Shown here: positions 1 to 5,610 of the stretch, in pieces
Numbering within the stretch: the first letter of the stretch is position 1
How the letters are laid out: every line of letters starts with the position of its first letter
Assembly (NCBI RefSeq): GCF_013282745.1
Contig: NZ_CP054044.1
Coordinates: forward strand, 682,001-746,000
Direction of reading: 5' to 3'
Length of the DNA: 64,000 nucleotides
DNA from: Yersinia bercovieri ATCC 43970
GTDB lineage: Bacteria; Pseudomonadota; Gammaproteobacteria; Enterobacterales; Enterobacteriaceae
Translations under genes and position numbers: made by a program
Notes under the pieces: generated by a model
Told to the model about the DNA's origin: nothing
Seen by the model: the letters and a program-made list of their open reading frames with translations, nothing else
Databases searched by the model: none

Positions 1-466
1 CTCGTCGCCTCAACCGAGCAGGAGGGCAGGCCGGCCCTCCTGCACCTGCGGCTTGCGCGAAATATTGCCCTGCGGGTAAACCTCCCACGTCTTTCGGGCT
101 GACGAGCCAGCGCGATGGGCATCCCTGCCCAAGCGCGCTTTTCGCGGGCGTCCTGCCCGCTCACTCTACCCTCCATCCTCGTCGGCAATATTCCTGATTG
201 CGCTCAAGGTTAAAAGCACATTTGAGCTGCCGAGTGAAGAGTGGAGGTAGGACGCGAGGCATGGATGCCGAGCGAGCCGTGCTTGAGCAGGAGCGAATCA
301 CGGCGGTCCGTCAGCCGAAACGATGATTGAGGGAACCTGCGAAGCAGGCAAGCGATACGTGCGCTAGCGCAGGGGTTCCAAGGGGGTTACGCGCTTGTAA
401 CCCCTTTGGCGGTTGGAGCATCGGAGGCAAGGTGAACACTGAAGCTTTAACAACCGAACCAATCAC
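1..466. repeat. Left copy of large inverted repeat flanking fepDGC
   Basis: This stretch is matched in inverted orientation by the segment between fepC and fes (about 3574-4083). Shared blocks include the GCCTCAACCGAG end, the block around 60-115, the block around 160-245, and 340-466 ending in CAACCGAACCAATCAC. Differences are substitutions, a 33-bp block missing here, and divergent sequence around 246-335. No transposase is encoded. It may continue left of the window. Short open frames inside it are probably not genes. Confidence 0.85.
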
Positions 467-494
467 CAAACTGAACCAAACTGTACCAAACTGA
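465..494. repeat. Three tandem 10-bp repeats upstream of fepD
   Basis: The unit ACCAAACTGA/T is repeated three times with exact 10-bp spacing, between the end of the large repeat and the Fur-like site. Spacing is close to one helical turn. It may be a slippage product or a binding array; nothing else supports a function. Confidence 0.6.
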
Positions 495-571
495 ATTGTA
501 ATAAATCCCCCTGCCCTCCCACCATAACTCGTGCTAACATAACCCCAGCAAATAATAATGATAATCAAATC

Positions 572-590
572 GATAACAATAATCATTTGT
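572..590. promoter_or_regulatory. Fur-box-like operator upstream of fepD
   Basis: The 19-mer GATAACAATAATCATTTGT matches the Fur consensus GATAATGATAATCATTATC at 14 of 19 positions. It lies 15 bp upstream of the fepD start codon in an AT-rich promoter region, with a second GATAATC-like half just upstream at 560-566. Iron-repressed expression is inferred from this site and from the gene content. Confidence 0.7.
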
Positions 591-605
591 TAAAAAAGAG
601 TAACA

Positions 606-1673
606 ATGCCAGCTGCTTATTCCTCAGATCAATCGTCAACAACAGCGCTGAAACCAGCCCCCACTCCAGGTGCGCAAACGCAGCGCCGACACGCCCTGTT
701 ACTGCTTCTCAGCCTCCTTATATTGATGCTGGTGATGGCGGCCAGCCTGATGTTCGGGGCCAAAGCTATCCCCTTATCCGTGGTGTGGCAAAGCCTGCTC
801 GGTGAGAGCCACAATGCCGATAGCATTTTGATATTGGAATCACGCCTGCCGCGCACCCTGATCGGGGTGCTCGCGGGTGCTGCCTTGGGGTTATCAGGTG
901 CGGTGATCCAAGCGCTGACCCGCAACCCGCTGGCTGATCCCGGTATTCTCGGGGTGAATGCAGGGGCCAGTTTTGCTGTGGTCATCGGCATAGTGGTGTT
1001 TGGCGTGCACGCCATTTACGGCTATATGATCTCGGCATTTATCGGCACCCTGATCACCACTCTGGTGGTCTATTGGGTCGGCGCAACCGGCGGCGGGCGG
1101 GTGAATCCTCTGCGCCTGACACTCTCTGGCGTCGCCATTGGTGCGGTATTAACCGGCATCACTTCCGGTATCTCGCTGACCCATCCACAGGTTTACGATA
1201 GTGTCCGCTTCTGGCAAGCGGGATCGCTGGATATCCGTAACATGGCGGTGGTGATAGCCGTCGCCCCACTCATTCTGCTCGGTTGCATCATTGCCCTGCT
1301 ACTGGCGCGGTCACTAAATGCCATACATATGGGGCAGGATCTGGCGGCGGCGATGGGGGCGCGTATTGCCCGCACCCAATTTTGGGCGGTAATCACCATC
1401 ACTCTATTATGTGGTGCGGCGACCGCGGCCGTCGGCCCTATCGCCTTTGTTGGCCTGATGGTGCCACATATTGCGCGCTGGATTGTCGGGCCAAATCAGG
1501 TCTGGATTTTACCATTTACGCTGGTAATGACACCTATCCTGCTATTGGCATCCGATATTGTTGGGCGCTTTTTGGTGCCGGGCGAATTGCGGGTTTCCAT
1601 CGTGACCGCATTTATTGGTGCGCCCCTACTGATCTGGCTGGTACGGCGTAACAAAAGGATGACCACACTATGA
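606..1673 (+). CDS. fepD: Ferric-enterobactin ABC transporter permease FepD-like
   Basis: A 355-residue FecCD-family inner-membrane permease that would form half of the channel importing ferric siderophore from periplasm to cytoplasm. A long hydrophilic N-terminus is followed by many hydrophobic segments. FecCD-family traits include a RLPRTLIGVLAGAALGLSGA-type segment near residues 80-100 followed by QALTRNPLADPGILGVNAGA, and a GPIAFVGLMVPHIAR segment near residue 280, the region that contacts the ATPase. The ATG follows an AAGAG Shine-Dalgarno sequence by five bases. Its stop overlaps the next start as ATGA, so the three genes are translationally coupled. A Fur-like site lies directly upstream. 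FepD rather than another siderophore permease is inferred from gene order and the nearby fes. Confidence 0.85.
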   Translation: MPAAYSSDQSSTTALKPAPTPGAQTQRRHALLLLLSLLILMLVMAASLMFGAKAIPLSVVWQSLLGESHNADSILILESRLPRTLIGVLAGAALGLSGAVIQALTRNPLADPGILGVNAGASFAVVIGIVVFGVHAIYGYMISAFIGTLITTLVVYWVGATGGGRVNPLRLTLSGVAIGAVLTGITSGISLTHPQVYDSVRFWQAGSLDIRNMAVVIAVAPLILLGCIIALLLARSLNAIHMGQDLAAAMGARIARTQFWAVITITLLCGAATAAVGPIAFVGLMVPHIARWIVGPNQVWILPFTLVMTPILLLASDIVGRFLVPGELRVSIVTAFIGAPLLIWLVRRNKRMTTL

Positions 1674-2713
1674 AACCCGCCACACCCACGTGGCTATTGG
1701 GGCGTCCTGATGGCCCGGTAAACTTACGTGTCCGGTCACGCAGTTTGATGGTAGGCGCTCTGCTATTACTGGCTTGCTTACTGAGTGCGCTGTTGGCATT
1801 AATGGCCGGCACGCTGTCGTTATCTCCCGAGCAGGTGGTGAATGCCTTGCTCGGCAATAGCCATGGCACTGTGGATATTATCGTCAATCAATGGCGCTTA
1901 CCCCGTGCTGTGATGGCGCTAATTTTCGGGGCGGCGCTAGGTGTTAGTGGCGCAATATTTCAATCATTAGTGCGCAACCCACTGGGCAGCCCAGATGTCA
2001 TCGGCTTCAATGTGGGGGCCTATACCGGCGCACTGGTCGCCATCACGTTGTTTAATGGCAACTATTTTGAGATTGCCAGTAGCGCACTGGTGGGGGGGTT
2101 ACTCTCCGCCATTGCGGTCTATTTACTGGCATATCGGCAGGGGATTCAGGGCTTTAGGCTGATTATTGTCGGCATTGCCATGGGTGCAATGCTGACGGCA
2201 TTCAATACCTGGCTGACGATCACCGCGTCACTGGAGTCTGCCATGACCGCCGCGGCCTGGGGGGCCGGTTCACTCAATGGCCTGACTTGGGCGAAAAGTC
2301 TGCCTTCGGTGCTGTTTATCACTATCGCCATGCTGGTTGCGATACTACTTAGCCGCCGTATGCCGTTGCTCGAAATGGGTGATGATGCTGCGGGTGCTTT
2401 GGGTGTGCCAGTGGAGAGAACGCGCCTGAGCCTAATGGCGATTGGGGTGATTCTGATGGCTGCCGTCACCGCCGCCGCTGGGCCAATCTCCTTTATTGCC
2501 TTAGCCGCGCCACAAATTGCACGGCGTCTGGCGGGAACATCATCAGTGACCTTCACCGCCTCGGCGTTGATGGGGGCGTTTCTGTTGATCGCAGCGGATC
2601 TCTGCGCCCAACACCTGTTTTTACCTAATCAACTGCCAGTCGGTGTTATCACTATCAGTATTGGTGGGCTGTATCTTATTTGGCTTTTAATCCGGGAGTC
2701 CGGGCGATCATGA
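1670..2713 (+). CDS. fepG: Ferric-enterobactin ABC transporter permease FepG-like
   Basis: A 347-residue second FecCD-family permease subunit, paired with the upstream FepD-like protein. It has the family segments RLPRAVMALIFGAALGVSGA, RNPLGSPDVIGFNVGA and GPISFIALAAPQIARRL, plus about ten hydrophobic stretches. It starts with ATG overlapping the previous stop, and its own stop overlaps the fepC start. The cytoplasmic N-terminus (about 25 residues, basic) precedes the first membrane segment. The substrate is inferred to be ferric enterobactin or a related catecholate, from the synteny fepD-fepG-fepC and the fes gene 600 bp downstream. Confidence 0.85.
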   Translation: MKPATPTWLLGRPDGPVNLRVRSRSLMVGALLLLACLLSALLALMAGTLSLSPEQVVNALLGNSHGTVDIIVNQWRLPRAVMALIFGAALGVSGAIFQSLVRNPLGSPDVIGFNVGAYTGALVAITLFNGNYFEIASSALVGGLLSAIAVYLLAYRQGIQGFRLIIVGIAMGAMLTAFNTWLTITASLESAMTAAAWGAGSLNGLTWAKSLPSVLFITIAMLVAILLSRRMPLLEMGDDAAGALGVPVERTRLSLMAIGVILMAAVTAAAGPISFIALAAPQIARRLAGTSSVTFTASALMGAFLLIAADLCAQHLFLPNQLPVGVITISIGGLYLIWLLIRESGRS

Positions 2714-3531
2714 CTATTGTTAACCCAGCGAGCAGCACCCCCCGTTTGCAGGCTGATGCCCTGACACTGGGCTATGACGGCAAGGTAATCAGCCAAAATT
2801 TGAGTGTCGCCATTCCTGATGGTGAGTTTACGGTGATAGTCGGCCCCAATGCTTGTGGTAAATCGACATTGCTGCGCGCATTGAGCCGTTTGCTGAAACC
2901 GCAGGCGGGCCAGGTGATTTTGGATGGCAAGAATATCGCCAGCCTTGATACTCGCCACGTCGCACGCCATTTGGGCTTATTGCCGCAAAGCTCGCAAGCA
3001 CCGGACGGTATCAGCGTATTGGATCTGGTGGCGCGGGGCCGCTATCCCCATCAGAAGCTATTACAGCAGTGGACACAGGCTGATAAACGGGCAGTCAGTG
3101 AAGCGATGCAGGCCACTGGCGTCAGTGAACTGGCTGACCGGTCAGTCGATGCCCTATCTGGCGGGCAGCGCCAGCGAGTCTGGATCGCCATGGTACTGGC
3201 GCAGCAAACACCGCTGCTGCTGTTGGATGAGCCAACCACCTATTTGGATATCGCCCATCAGATTGATTTACTTGAGTTATTCAGCCACCTGAATCAGCAC
3301 AATAACCACACGCTGGTTGCTGTCCTGCATGATCTCAACCACGCCTGCCGCTACGCCAGCCATATTATCGCCATGCGCGACGGGCAGATAGTGACGCAAG
3401 GTAAACCGCGCGAGGTGATTACCGCCCAGTTGGTAGAACAGGTGTTTGGTATGCCGTGTTTGATTATTGATGATCCGGTGTCGGGGACGCCGTTGGTGAT
3501 CCCGAGGGGGAGATTTAGGGTTTCGGTTTAA
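2710..3531 (+). CDS. fepC: Ferric-enterobactin ABC transporter ATPase FepC-like
   Basis: A 273-residue ABC ATPase that powers siderophore import through FepD/FepG. It shows a complete nucleotide-binding site: Walker A GPNACGKST near residue 46, signature LSGGQRQR near 150, Walker B LLLLDEPTTYLD near 170, and the switch histidine in AVLHDLNHA near 205. The ATG at 2710 overlaps the fepG stop (ATGA) and is preferred over an in-frame upstream ATG lying inside fepG. The gene is followed by a short GTTTAA repeat and then the right copy of the large inverted repeat. No binding-protein gene (fepB) follows. Confidence 0.88.
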   Translation: MTIVNPASSTPRLQADALTLGYDGKVISQNLSVAIPDGEFTVIVGPNACGKSTLLRALSRLLKPQAGQVILDGKNIASLDTRHVARHLGLLPQSSQAPDGISVLDLVARGRYPHQKLLQQWTQADKRAVSEAMQATGVSELADRSVDALSGGQRQRVWIAMVLAQQTPLLLLDEPTTYLDIAHQIDLLELFSHLNQHNNHTLVAVLHDLNHACRYASHIIAMRDGQIVTQGKPREVITAQLVEQVFGMPCLIIDDPVSGTPLVIPRGRFRVSV

Positions 3532-3573
3532 GTTTAAGTTTAGTTAGATCGGATCAGGTTTCGGTTGATAGCG

Positions 3574-4083
3574 GCTCAGGCGATCGGTTCGGTTGACATG
3601 AGATCGGCGTTCACTTGGCCTCCAGCGCCTCAACCGCCAATGGGGTTACAAGCGCGTAACCCCCTTGGAACCCCTGCGCTTGCGCACGTATCGCTTGCCT
3701 GCTTCGCAGGTTCCCTCGACTCATCCTTTCGCTGGCGGGACGGCTTTATTCGCATCCCTGCTCATGACGCCTAAATCCGCCGTCCATGGCGGATTTCCCT
3801 TGCTCCACTCTTCACTCGGCAGCTCAAATGTGCTTTTAACTTCAACACCTAAAACAAAGAAGAGGGTTTTGATGTTGAGCGCAATCAGGAATATTGCCGA
3901 CGAGGATGGAGGGTAGAGTGAGCGGGCAGGACGCCCGCGAAAAGCGCGCTTGAGCATGGATGCGAATCGCGCTGGCTCGTCAGCCCGAAAGACGTAGGAG
4001 GTTTACCCGCAGGGCAATATTTCGCGCAAGGCGCGGGTGTTGGGCCGCCGCCCTGCGGCCCGACTCGGTTGAGGCGTCGAGGG
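3574..4083. repeat. Right copy of large inverted repeat flanking fepDGC
   Basis: It fills the gap between fepC and fes and is the reverse complement of most of 1-466. The CGATCGGTTCGGTTGAC end corresponds to 451-466, and the CTCGGTTGAGGCGTCGAG end (4064-4082) corresponds to position 1. This copy is longer and holds 33 bp absent from the left copy near 3845-3880. A 78-codon open frame on the minus strand (3721-3957) has no recognisable domain and is not called as a gene. Confidence 0.85.
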
Positions 4084-4134
4084 TCAGGTGATCACTGAAC
4101 GAATATCAACCGAAACCAGATCCAATCTCAATCA

Positions 4135-5439
4135 TCAACCACCACACCGTGCTCCCAGCAATCGCCCTAATCCCTCAATCAGCCCCCCTCGCCAACAGAG
4201 TGAATCATGCCCGCCGCAATAAACCCGATACTGTAATCGATGCCCGGCACGGCGTAGCGCTTCACTCATCACTTCATTGACCTGATAAATCACATCCTCG
4301 TGGCGGCCTGCTTCCATAAATATATTCAACGGCTGGTTAGCCCCCAACCCTTGCAACACCTGCTCAGTCAACCAGCCCTGACGCTCGACCGTACCGGCGG
4401 TTAACCCCTTAACATGGTCGACGTCCGGCCACCAAAAAGAACCCGATTGGCTCAGCACGCAGCCAAAACGCTGTGGCCAGTGTAATCCGGCATACAGCGA
4501 TGCCAAGCCGCCAAAACTTTGCCCCGCCACCACGGTGCGAGATGGCTGCTCGGTAAAGGGTTGCAGCAAGGCCACTTGCGGTAACAGCTCCGTTTGCAAC
4601 GCCTGCCAGAAATCCTGATTGCAGGGCAGTTCCTGTGAACGATGCTTTTGGTCAATGATATCTACCAACACATACACAGTGGCAGGAAGGCGGCCCACAG
4701 CGGTTTCATTATCCAGTACGCCAAACAGTGGCTGTCTCTCCGCCCAATACTGCCCATCGAGCAAGATAGCTAATGGCCGCTCGGCCAGAGCTTCAGCACT
4801 GCCCGTAGAGTAAATCCACACCTTGCGGCTGTTAGCTAATAACGGGCTGTCCCAAGTGATCAGTTGCAGCCGTTGTGGATCGGGCGGGAGTGGTTGGCCT
4901 GCATCAATGGGGTGCCAGGCGGGCTGTGGCAGAGCATCGGCTAAATGTATCGCCGAGAGCGCCATCCCCCGATAACTAGCATGGGCGGCAGTGTGGTTTA
5001 GCGGGTCGTTTTCCGCCAGATCCATTAATGAGATCCACCAATTACGCTGTGCCAGACGCCGCTCCTGCCGGCTGCCTGCCGGCAAACACAAACACGTCTC
5101 GCCAGTGACGGGAATAAAGCTGTAGCTGCCGCGAAAATCAGACTCCACCTCCGCCTGCCAATACCAGACATCGGTCTGGCCCAACCGCTGGAGGGTTTCA
5201 GGATTGACACTGTGGTGATCAGTTACACCGTTGACGTCGATATATACCCGGCTAACCACAGCATCGCGCGCCCTACCCTGCCGATCACGCCAGAGAAATG
5301 TCAGCTTTACTTTGCCCTCACCCAGCGGTTCAGCCAGTGGAGTGCCCCACTGTGCAATCTGCTGCCACCAGCCGTCACTGCCGGCCGAAGGTGAGTGTAA
5401 CAACTGCTGACTATCTGGATATCGGTTCACCACGCTCAC
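4135..5439 (-). CDS. fes: Enterobactin (enterochelin) esterase Fes
   Basis: A 434-residue cytoplasmic esterase that hydrolyses the trilactone of ferric enterobactin so iron can be released. The N-terminal half is the enterochelin-esterase N domain. The C-terminal half is an esterase-D-like alpha/beta hydrolase with nucleophile elbow GQSFGG near residue 315 and a late histidine in CGGHDS near 410. It is somewhat longer than E. coli Fes (about 400). The start is GTG at 5439-5437, with AAGGA ten bases upstream. It is convergent with fepDGC across the repeat, so it has its own promoter. With no biosynthesis genes visible, the cell probably uses enterobactin made by others (inference). Confidence 0.9.
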   Translation of the reverse strand: MSVVNRYPDSQQLLHSPSAGSDGWWQQIAQWGTPLAEPLGEGKVKLTFLWRDRQGRARDAVVSRVYIDVNGVTDHHSVNPETLQRLGQTDVWYWQAEVESDFRGSYSFIPVTGETCLCLPAGSRQERRLAQRNWWISLMDLAENDPLNHTAAHASYRGMALSAIHLADALPQPAWHPIDAGQPLPPDPQRLQLITWDSPLLANSRKVWIYSTGSAEALAERPLAILLDGQYWAERQPLFGVLDNETAVGRLPATVYVLVDIIDQKHRSQELPCNQDFWQALQTELLPQVALLQPFTEQPSRTVVAGQSFGGLASLYAGLHWPQRFGCVLSQSGSFWWPDVDHVKGLTAGTVERQGWLTEQVLQGLGANQPLNIFMEAGRHEDVIYQVNEVMSEALRRAGHRLQYRVYCGGHDSLCWRGGLIEGLGRLLGARCGG

Positions 5440-5570
5440 GGACTATCCTTTTTGAGTAGGCTCAGAATTATTAATATTACCGATAATTGATTAAAGAAAA
5501 GTAAATTTTTACCTCGATTCGCGCCATTTATGCCTCGCGTTTTAAAAAAAACAGAATAAATTCAGTGTGC

Positions 5571-5610
5571 TAACCTTTATGTAACCTTTCCATTCAATCA
5601 GCGTAACCGG
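5571..5610. promoter_or_regulatory. Phased TAACC repeats upstream of copper operon
   Basis: TAACCTTT occurs at 5571-5578 and 5582-5589, exactly 11 bp apart, and TAACCGG recurs at 5604, another 22 bp on. Such helically phased direct repeats upstream of a promoter resemble binding arrays of OmpR-type response regulators. A possible -10 element TATACT lies at 5643-5648 with a weak -35 (TTCTAA, 5620-5625), consistent with an activated promoter for the following operon. The regulator is not in the window. Confidence 0.45.

What the first reader, a model, noticed from the sequence alone, without database searches (positions are those of the whole stretch)
1..4083. fepDGC bracketed by two inverted copies of a large non-coding repeat
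The stretches 1-466 and 3574-4083 are inverted copies of one another and enclose exactly the fepDGC operon. Neither encodes a transposase. Such an arrangement could allow inversion of the cassette with its Fur promoter, could be a non-autonomous composite element that carried the importer in, or could be a scar of rearrangement within the fep-fes cluster.
Basis: partly seen in the sequence, partly recalled or inferred. Interest (0 to 1): 0.7.

Follow-up and report, generated by a model that had tools for sequence, protein, structure and literature searches.

The report
Twin-hairpin repeats that switch orientation
The two inverted repeats around an iron-uptake operon are separate copies of an old, scattered non-coding DNA element made of two back-to-back RNA-like folds; between species the copies keep their places while their contents are swapped and turned round, and the operon itself is not a mobile cassette.

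Summary
The inverted pair is real. Each arm is a separate, complete copy of a ~560-bp non-coding element: 22 BLAST pieces in the own genome, about five near full length; at least one match in 25 of 25 genus genomes. Each of 79 fetched copies holds one divergent pair of homologous modules, L and R. R modules covary strongly (99.1% of cells paired; 142 double changes against 46 in shuffles). Modules match Rfam TwoAYGGAY, over its cut-off in 8 of 25 genus and 21 of 295 family genomes.

fepDGC is not a composite transposon: it is in 23 of 25 genomes and the flanking copies come, go and turn independently. New: of 21 sites shared between genomes, 10 carry the element in both orientations (at least 15 switches), and cores often differ although flanks are conserved. 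This points to orientation-blind exchange between copies (inferred). One clade has an entS-fepDGC block inverted with element pieces at its junctions: ancient rearrangement, no sign of switching. An RNA or CsrA role is only a hypothesis.

The parts
1..206 (-). left copy, R module (outward strand -); about 28 further bases lie left of the window
   Evidence: profile HMM hit L182:1973-2207, 231 bits; BLAST
206..469 (+). left copy, L module (outward strand +)
   Evidence: profile HMM hit L182:2207-2470, 238 bits
3578..3846 (-). right copy, L module (outward strand -)
   Evidence: profile HMM hit L182:5579-5847, 256 bits
3847..3875 (.). right copy, centre between the modules
   Evidence: gap between the two HMM hits
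3876..4110 (+). right copy, R module (outward strand +)
   Evidence: profile HMM hit L182:5877-6111, 231 bits
3546..3579 (.). terminal inverted repeat of the right copy, fepC side
   Evidence: I4, 82% complementary to 4095-4128
4095..4128 (.). terminal inverted repeat of the right copy, fes side
   Evidence: I4
89..168 (-). TwoAYGGAY-like fold in the left copy, R module
   Evidence: RF01731, 40.4 bits, gathering score 43
248..313 (+). TwoAYGGAY-like fold in the left copy, L module
   Evidence: RF01731, 30.0 bits, below the gathering score
3737..3800 (-). TwoAYGGAY-like fold in the right copy, L module
   Evidence: RF01731, 35.5 bits, below the gathering score
3886..4025 (+). TwoAYGGAY-like fold in the right copy, R module
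   Evidence: RF01731, 39.3 bits, below the gathering score
606..1673 (+). fepD (bystander)
   Evidence: Pfam FecCD; gene name by recalled synteny
1670..2713 (+). fepG (bystander)
   Evidence: Pfam FecCD; gene name by recalled synteny
2710..3531 (+). fepC (bystander)
   Evidence: Pfam ABC_tran; gene name by recalled synteny
4135..5439 (-). fes, neighbour beyond the right copy
   Evidence: Pfam Enterochelin_N and Esterase

Best explanation
The bracket is two separate copies of one dispersed, non-coding, MITE- or BIME-like element. SHOWN: each copy is a divergent twin of two homologous, structure-conserved modules (L and R) whose outer ends carry CAACCGAAAC-type repeats; copies sit between genes at sites shared by several species; at shared sites the core often differs from its positional counterpart in content and in orientation although the flanks are conserved. 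INFERRED: cores are overwritten by other copies through recombination or gene conversion between elements, and because the two ends are inverted versions of each other the new core can enter either way round. fepDGC is a bystander. Two close copies in inverted orientation can now and then be the substrate for inverting what lies between, as probably happened once to the entS-fepDGC block in one clade. The conserved folds suggest that the modules act as structured RNA, perhaps in read-through transcripts of neighbouring genes, or as hairpins needed for the element's own spread; which of these is not shown.
For: Genus-wide dispersed family. One divergent L/R pair in each of 79 loci, no convergent pair. 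The halves are homologous. Covariation in 27 R modules. Of 140 positional pairs 72 are same and 68 opposite in orientation, the label confirmed by BLAST strand in 140 of 140; 10 of 21 shared sites polymorphic. Opposite pairs have core identity 0.759 (68 pairs), like unrelated copies (0.754, 2,725 pairs), while copies within a genome average 0.813 (216 pairs). With flanks at 93% or more, same-orientation cores range from 0.710 to 1.000 (18 pairs) and opposite ones are 0.725, 0.773 and 0.866 (3 pairs). The right fep copy looks mosaic: L half like own copy L002, R half largely like the left fep copy. fepDGC is conserved with or without the copies.
Against: Many replaced cores have their best match in another genome, not the own one; only about 80 of several hundred pieces were fetched. 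Within-genome identity is higher than between-genome identity in 13 of 17 genomes and lower in 4, each with a single pair. Opposite pairs are still slightly closer than the baseline (+0.013, Wilcoxon p 0.03). At flank identities below 0.88 same and opposite cores hardly differ (0.758 and 0.736, 0.796 and 0.791, 0.732 and 0.739). No strain-level data, no donor-recipient pair caught in the act, no target duplication.
Confidence: 0.65

Rival explanations
1. In-place inversion: a recombinase, or recombination across the terminal inverted repeats, flips the element again and again; the low core identity is only fast intergenic evolution.
For: Inverted terminal repeats; L077 against L111 has flanks at 90% and 95% and the interior inverted between them.
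Against: Flipped cores differ more than their flanks and more than most unflipped cores at the same flank identity (0.866, 0.725 and 0.773 against a mean of 0.894 for 18 unflipped), and at the L048 site 77-86% with flanks at 94-97%. Replacement without a flip also occurs (L086 and L097, flanks 0.970, core 0.752).
Confidence: 0.15
2. Repeated transposition: a transposase acting in trans, not found here, re-inserts the element at preferred places such as older element ends.
For: Dispersed copies with terminal inverted repeats; in another genus a TwoAYGGAY hit lies between exact 18-bp inverted repeats (L229, by eye). The own genome has nine IS200-type Y1 transposase frames.
Against: The two presumed unique sites that I tested were occupied in the sister genome. 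None of the nine Y1 frames lies within 30 kb of the five near-full copies (positions), and no transposase or target duplication was seen.
Confidence: 0.13
3. fepDGC and its two flanking repeats form one unit, a composite element or a switchable cassette.
For: Two inverted copies enclose the operon; an entS-fepDGC block is inverted in one clade with element pieces at its junctions.
Against: fepC is present in 23 of 25 genomes and 10 of 23 loci have no element hit. The copies at the two sides vary independently; in G015 both lie in one orientation. The inverted state is confined to one clade.
Confidence: 0.03

Closest known systems
TwoAYGGAY RNA (Rfam RF01731, clan CL00106)
   Same: Both modules match its two-hairpin core on the outward strand; some hits pass the gathering score. 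A screen of 2010 listed it from human gut, gamma-Proteobacteria and Clostridiales (PMC2864571, one passage).
   Different: Here it is a dispersed repeat arranged as a divergent twin inside a larger fold. I saw no description of that arrangement in the passages read, which were few.
CsrB/RsmZ-type CsrA-binding RNAs
   Same: GGA motifs on the outward strand; TwoAYGGAY was proposed as CsrA-binding (PMC4333381, passages).
   Different: No transcript, promoter or binding shown; ANGGA counts are only modestly above dinucleotide shuffles (1.96 against 1.36, sd 1.11, and 2.70 against 1.71, sd 1.30).
Yersinia MITE-like repeats ERIC and YPAL
   Same: Dispersed, non-coding, hairpin-forming intergenic repeats (passages of PMC2267715 and PMC2847712).
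   Different: 127 and 167 bp in PMC2847712 against about 560 bp and two divergent modules here. Sequence was not compared directly.
REP/BIME repeats with RAYT transposases
   Same: Palindromic units combined into composite intergenic repeats (PMC3733652, passages).
   Different: The GTAG tag is not constant at the stem base in alignment A3 (GGGTAGAG in some rows, AGGCCGAA in others); no associated transposase seen; the module is about 235-270 nt, not 20-40.

Membership tests
TwoAYGGAY RNA (RF01731) | covariance-model score at or above the gathering score | tested here: met
   Met by at least one copy in 8 of 25 genus genomes and 21 of 295 family genomes; not met by the four modules in this window (30.0-40.4 bits against 43).
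TwoAYGGAY RNA (RF01731) | two hairpins with GGA loops, conserved with compensatory changes | tested here: met
   27 R modules: both hairpins covary (helices 7 and 8); whole structure 99.1% of cells paired, 142 double-change cells against 45.8 in shuffles.
CsrA-binding RNA | binding of CsrA | not testable with these tools
   Only indirect: GGA asymmetry and csrA in 25 of 25 genus genomes.
CsrA-binding RNA | transcription from a promoter of its own | tested here: inconclusive
   Consensus scan of window 1-5600 found 4 promoter-like sites against 4.1 expected; no expression data.
MITE | terminal inverted repeats, no coding capacity, many copies | tested here: met
MITE | target site duplication and a transposase acting in trans | tested here: inconclusive
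   No empty site found for the two sites tested; nine Y1 transposase frames in the genome, none near a near-full copy.
GTAG REP | GTAG at one end of a 20-40 bp palindrome | tested here: not met
   GTAG is present in only some rows of A3 and the modules are about 235-270 nt.
Composite transposon | paired terminal elements that travel together with the cargo | tested here: not met
   Cargo conserved without the elements; the elements at the two sides vary independently.

The most novel reading that the evidence does not exclude
The element is an orientation-symmetric RNA device. Its two outward TwoAYGGAY domains mean that read-through from either neighbouring gene, in either orientation of the element, gives a transcript that carries a CsrA-type double GGA hairpin. 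The dispersed copies together act as 3'-end regulators or as a distributed CsrA sponge. They are kept alike by orientation-blind cassette exchange, and the divergent twin layout is what makes that exchange harmless.
Probability: 0.2. Interest if true: 0.8.

Novelty: new variant of a known kind. Interest (0 to 1): 0.55.

Why it matters
Bacterial intergenic repeats are mostly explained as dead mobile DNA or as local hairpins. Here a repeat family keeps its places between species while its contents turn over and turn round, with strong conservation of a fold. That is a tractable natural case of concerted evolution of non-coding DNA in bacteria. It gives the orphan RNA family TwoAYGGAY a genomic setting (matches in 27 of 154 genera sampled in the family) and makes its proposed link to CsrA testable. 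It also shows how short inverted repeats may seed gene-order changes in a siderophore cluster.

Tried and rejected
Composite transposon or switchable fepDGC: rejected. Plasmid- or phage-borne element: no match in those two collections in 'distant' mode at E 1e-5. Strand test by G-U against A-C pairs: on the pairs shared by both strands' predicted structures 58:83 (right modules) and 65:18 (left), so inconclusive and not used. ANGGA counts are within one standard deviation of dinucleotide shuffles, and the GGA of ANGGA is fully unpaired in single-sequence folds in only 145 of 225 (right) and 123 of 273 (left) cases. Promoter and terminator scan of window 1-5600: 4 against 4.1 expected and 5 against 5.3. 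Mixed L and R alignments A1 and A2 aligned poorly; A2 gave 5 pairs, so A3 (27 R modules picked by hand for spread) was used. Target duplication: the two presumed unique sites tested, of eight, were occupied in the sister genome. The fepC-fes copy of G013 holds a run of N, so its orientation was not counted. Papers: ten searches brought up no account of this twin repeat or of its change of orientation; titles and abstracts of the listed papers and passages of five papers were seen, no paper in full. PMC2847712 reports 44 de novo repeat families in a supplement that I could not read, so this family may be listed there unnamed.
Full report
THE OBSERVATION. Two long inverted arms bracket fepDGC: 1-215 with 3867-4081 (90%), 329-467 with 3579-3717 (86%), 209-251 with 3798-3840 (95%). 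The left arm runs off the window: the window is G000:C1:682001-746000 and the left copy C1:681945-682467. The arms hold no long open frame. Between them lie fepD and fepG (Pfam FecCD) and fepC (ABC_tran); beyond the right arm is fes (Enterochelin_N, Esterase), and left of the left arm a Peripla_BP_2 protein taken as fepB. Gene names beyond the Pfam families rest on recalled synteny.

A GENUS-WIDE DISPERSED FAMILY. The right copy has 22 BLAST matches in the own genome, about five of them near full length, and 1 to 49 matches in each of 25 of 25 genus genomes. In 246 sampled family genomes 10 have a match, three of them in this genus. There is no match in the plasmid and phage collections. The own genome groups with G002 and G015 on an fepDGC tree; its species was not established.

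ANATOMY. The element is two homologous modules back to back. The outward strands of the two halves of the right copy align with score 140, against 70.6 (sd 7.2, maximum 94.5) for 200 mononucleotide shuffles. With profile HMMs of both modules, each of 79 distinct loci holds exactly one divergent L/R pair with a gap of 0-75 bp (median 37). The other 14 adjacent strong pairs are tandem copies of one module, and none is convergent. These 79 loci are the better BLAST hits of a whole-element query, so they are biased to full copies. G002 has tandem arrays of at least five and of four R modules. The outer ends carry TATCAACCGAAACCAGATCC-type repeats, inverted at the two ends and reiterated in many copies. 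The same divergent layout is seen at five loci in four genomes of other genera, G071 (two), G126, G235 and G040.

STRUCTURE AND RFAM. Cmscan finds TwoAYGGAY (RF01731) on the outward strand of all four modules of the window, each below the cut-off. Over the genus 17 of 25 genomes match at E 0.001 and 8 pass the cut-off; 0 of 14 control genomes match. Over the family 43 of 295 match and 21 pass, in 27 of 154 genera, with filters that lose weak matches. Of 20 of the 30 loci from that search, 17 hold one hit and 3 (L233, L235, L249) hold two, each time divergent. On 27 R modules a 56-pair structure has 99.1% of cells paired (shuffles 89.1, sd 0.5), 142 cells changed on both sides (45.8, sd 5.3) and a covariation score of 0.279 (0.108, sd 0.006). 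It collapses when slid by 1-3 columns; the number of further pair types does not exceed shuffles (35 against 34.8). The structure was derived from these sequences, and many double changes are blocks shared by 11-12 rows (two alleles of the outer hairpin), so events are fewer than cells. In 115 right and 101 left module sets, which overlap because the modules cross-hit, stems vary in the same way while GGA loops stay. GGA occurs 5.6 against 0.9 times (right) and 5.8 against 2.1 times (left) on the outward and inward strands, but the fuller motif ANGGA is only modestly above dinucleotide shuffles (1.96 against 1.36, sd 1.11; 2.70 against 1.71, sd 1.30). PMC4333381 (passages) proposed TwoAYGGAY as CsrA-binding; csrA is in 25 of 25 genus genomes. 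Against an RNA reading: no promoter or terminator excess, and the G-U test is inconclusive.

THE FEP LOCUS IN RELATIVES. fepC is present at 84% identity or more in 23 of 25 genomes; G017 and G022 have only homologues at 51% or less. Of the 23 loci read (the own and 22 relatives) 10 have no element hit at E 1e-4 and 13 have one or more. The element lies directly on both sides of fepDGC in the own genome (left -, right +) and in G015 (both -), so at the fepC-fes site it lies the other way round in G015. By eye, spacers of G002, G007, G011 and G024 hold short remnants. fepB precedes fepDGC on the same strand in 16 loci, is not in the stretch in 4, and in 3 (G012, G019, G023) follows it convergently. 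Of 13 loci mapped by ORFs, five (G005, G008, G009, G010, G021) show entC< fepB> <entS fepDGC> <NRPS, and the 3 show NRPS> <entS fepDGC> <fepB entC>, that is, the entS-fepDGC block inverted (entC and entS are supported by Pfam on one representative each, and NRPS was named by eye). In G012 element pieces lie at both junctions, inverted to each other (L167 1666-2171 and 6658-6787); G019 and G023 each keep one. The three are one clade, so one event suffices. This fits recombination between inverted copies but does not prove it.

ORIENTATION TURNS OVER AT FIXED SITES. The 79 elements fall into 29 sites, 21 of them shared by two or more genomes on both flanks of up to 1.4 kb. Of 140 positional pairs 72 have the element in the same and 68 in the opposite orientation. 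BLAST strand agrees with the label in 140 of 140, and among nine genomes whose chromosome is one contig the count is 20 opposite and 19 same, so assembly error is an unlikely explanation. Pairs are not independent. By site, 10 of 21 are polymorphic, and parsimony on the one-locus tree (without G017, which has no fepC) needs at least 15 switches, against 19.0 (sd 2.5) for random orientation. The sister pairs G013/G014 and G007/G011 agree in 11 of 11 pairs, whereas G004 and G018 disagree at the L077/L111 site, with flanks aligned at 90% and 95% and the interior inverted at 86%, and at the L048 site.

REPLACEMENT RATHER THAN MERE FLIPPING. Mean core identity is 0.813 within genomes (216 pairs), 0.817 for same-orientation positional pairs (72), 0.759 for opposite ones (68) and 0.754 for all other between-genome pairs (2,725). 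Against the non-positional baseline of the same two genomes, same pairs stand at +0.055 (61 pairs, the 11 sister pairs left out) and opposite pairs at +0.013 (68 pairs; above zero at Wilcoxon p 0.03); Mann-Whitney p between the two is 0.003, ignoring non-independence. With flanks at 93% or more, same-orientation cores range from 0.710 to 1.000 (mean 0.894, 18 pairs) and the three opposite ones are 0.725, 0.773 and 0.866; below 88% flank identity the two classes hardly differ. At the L048 site G018 and G004 have flanks at 94-97% and opposite cores at 77-86%. The window's right copy matches own copy L002 at 95-100% in the first four scan windows and the left fep copy at 94-100% in the four middle ones, then at 88% and 86% in the last two. 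This is what exchange between copies predicts. Within-genome identity exceeds between-genome identity in 13 of 17 genomes (for example G014, 0.842 against 0.749) and is lower in 4 (G001, G006, G007, G011), each with a single pair. Several replaced cores have their best match in another genome, which may reflect incomplete sampling or exchange between species.

CONTEXT AND FUNCTION. By site majority the neighbouring ORFs (120 aa or more, called mechanically) are convergent at 15, tandem at 13 and divergent at 1 of 29 sites, so the element tends to sit behind genes. At fepD it lies between fepB and the A+T-rich stretch before fepD, which carries a Fur-box-like sequence (recalled motif). Because the twin is divergent, read-through from either side meets one module in its outward sense. 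That geometry, the covariation and the GGA loops make an RNA role plausible, but nothing here shows transcription or binding.

VERDICT. The bracket is real, but the unit is the repeat and not the operon. It is a new variant of a known kind: a MITE- or BIME-like repeat built from TwoAYGGAY domains, with an unusual turnover at fixed sites that strain-level genomes can test.

Noticed in passing
L058:1846-3586 and L034:507-1754 (G002, Y. aleksiciae): Tandem arrays of the R module (at least five and four copies, about 336 bp apart) at two chromosomal places.
   Followed up: partly
L126:675-2350 (G126, another genus): A gene-sized stretch of about 1.1 kb with a 92-aa frame lies between two outward modules, with repeated centre pieces on both sides.
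   Followed up: no
L229 around 1380-1850 (G051, another genus): A TwoAYGGAY hit lies between exact inverted repeats of 18 bp (by eye), which suggests a MITE-like carrier in that genus too.
   Followed up: no
L073 (G003, Y. alsatica) and L042 (G024, Y. vastinensis): Cores at one site are 99.4% identical between two species although the sister of G003 (G009) differs and is reversed: recent exchange between species or strong constraint.
   Followed up: no
L240 around 1690-1860 (G044, another genus): Long run of an AACCCAC-type short tandem repeat next to a TwoAYGGAY hit.
   Followed up: no
G000 chromosome, nine places: Nine Y1 transposase frames of 171 aa with identical scores, an IS200-like element in many copies, two of them 0.7 kb apart.
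   Followed up: no
L041:2887-3010 (G006): Sub-threshold match to Rfam V_AS5 (42 bits, gathering score 96), E 9e-6, about 0.8 kb from the element.
   Followed up: no
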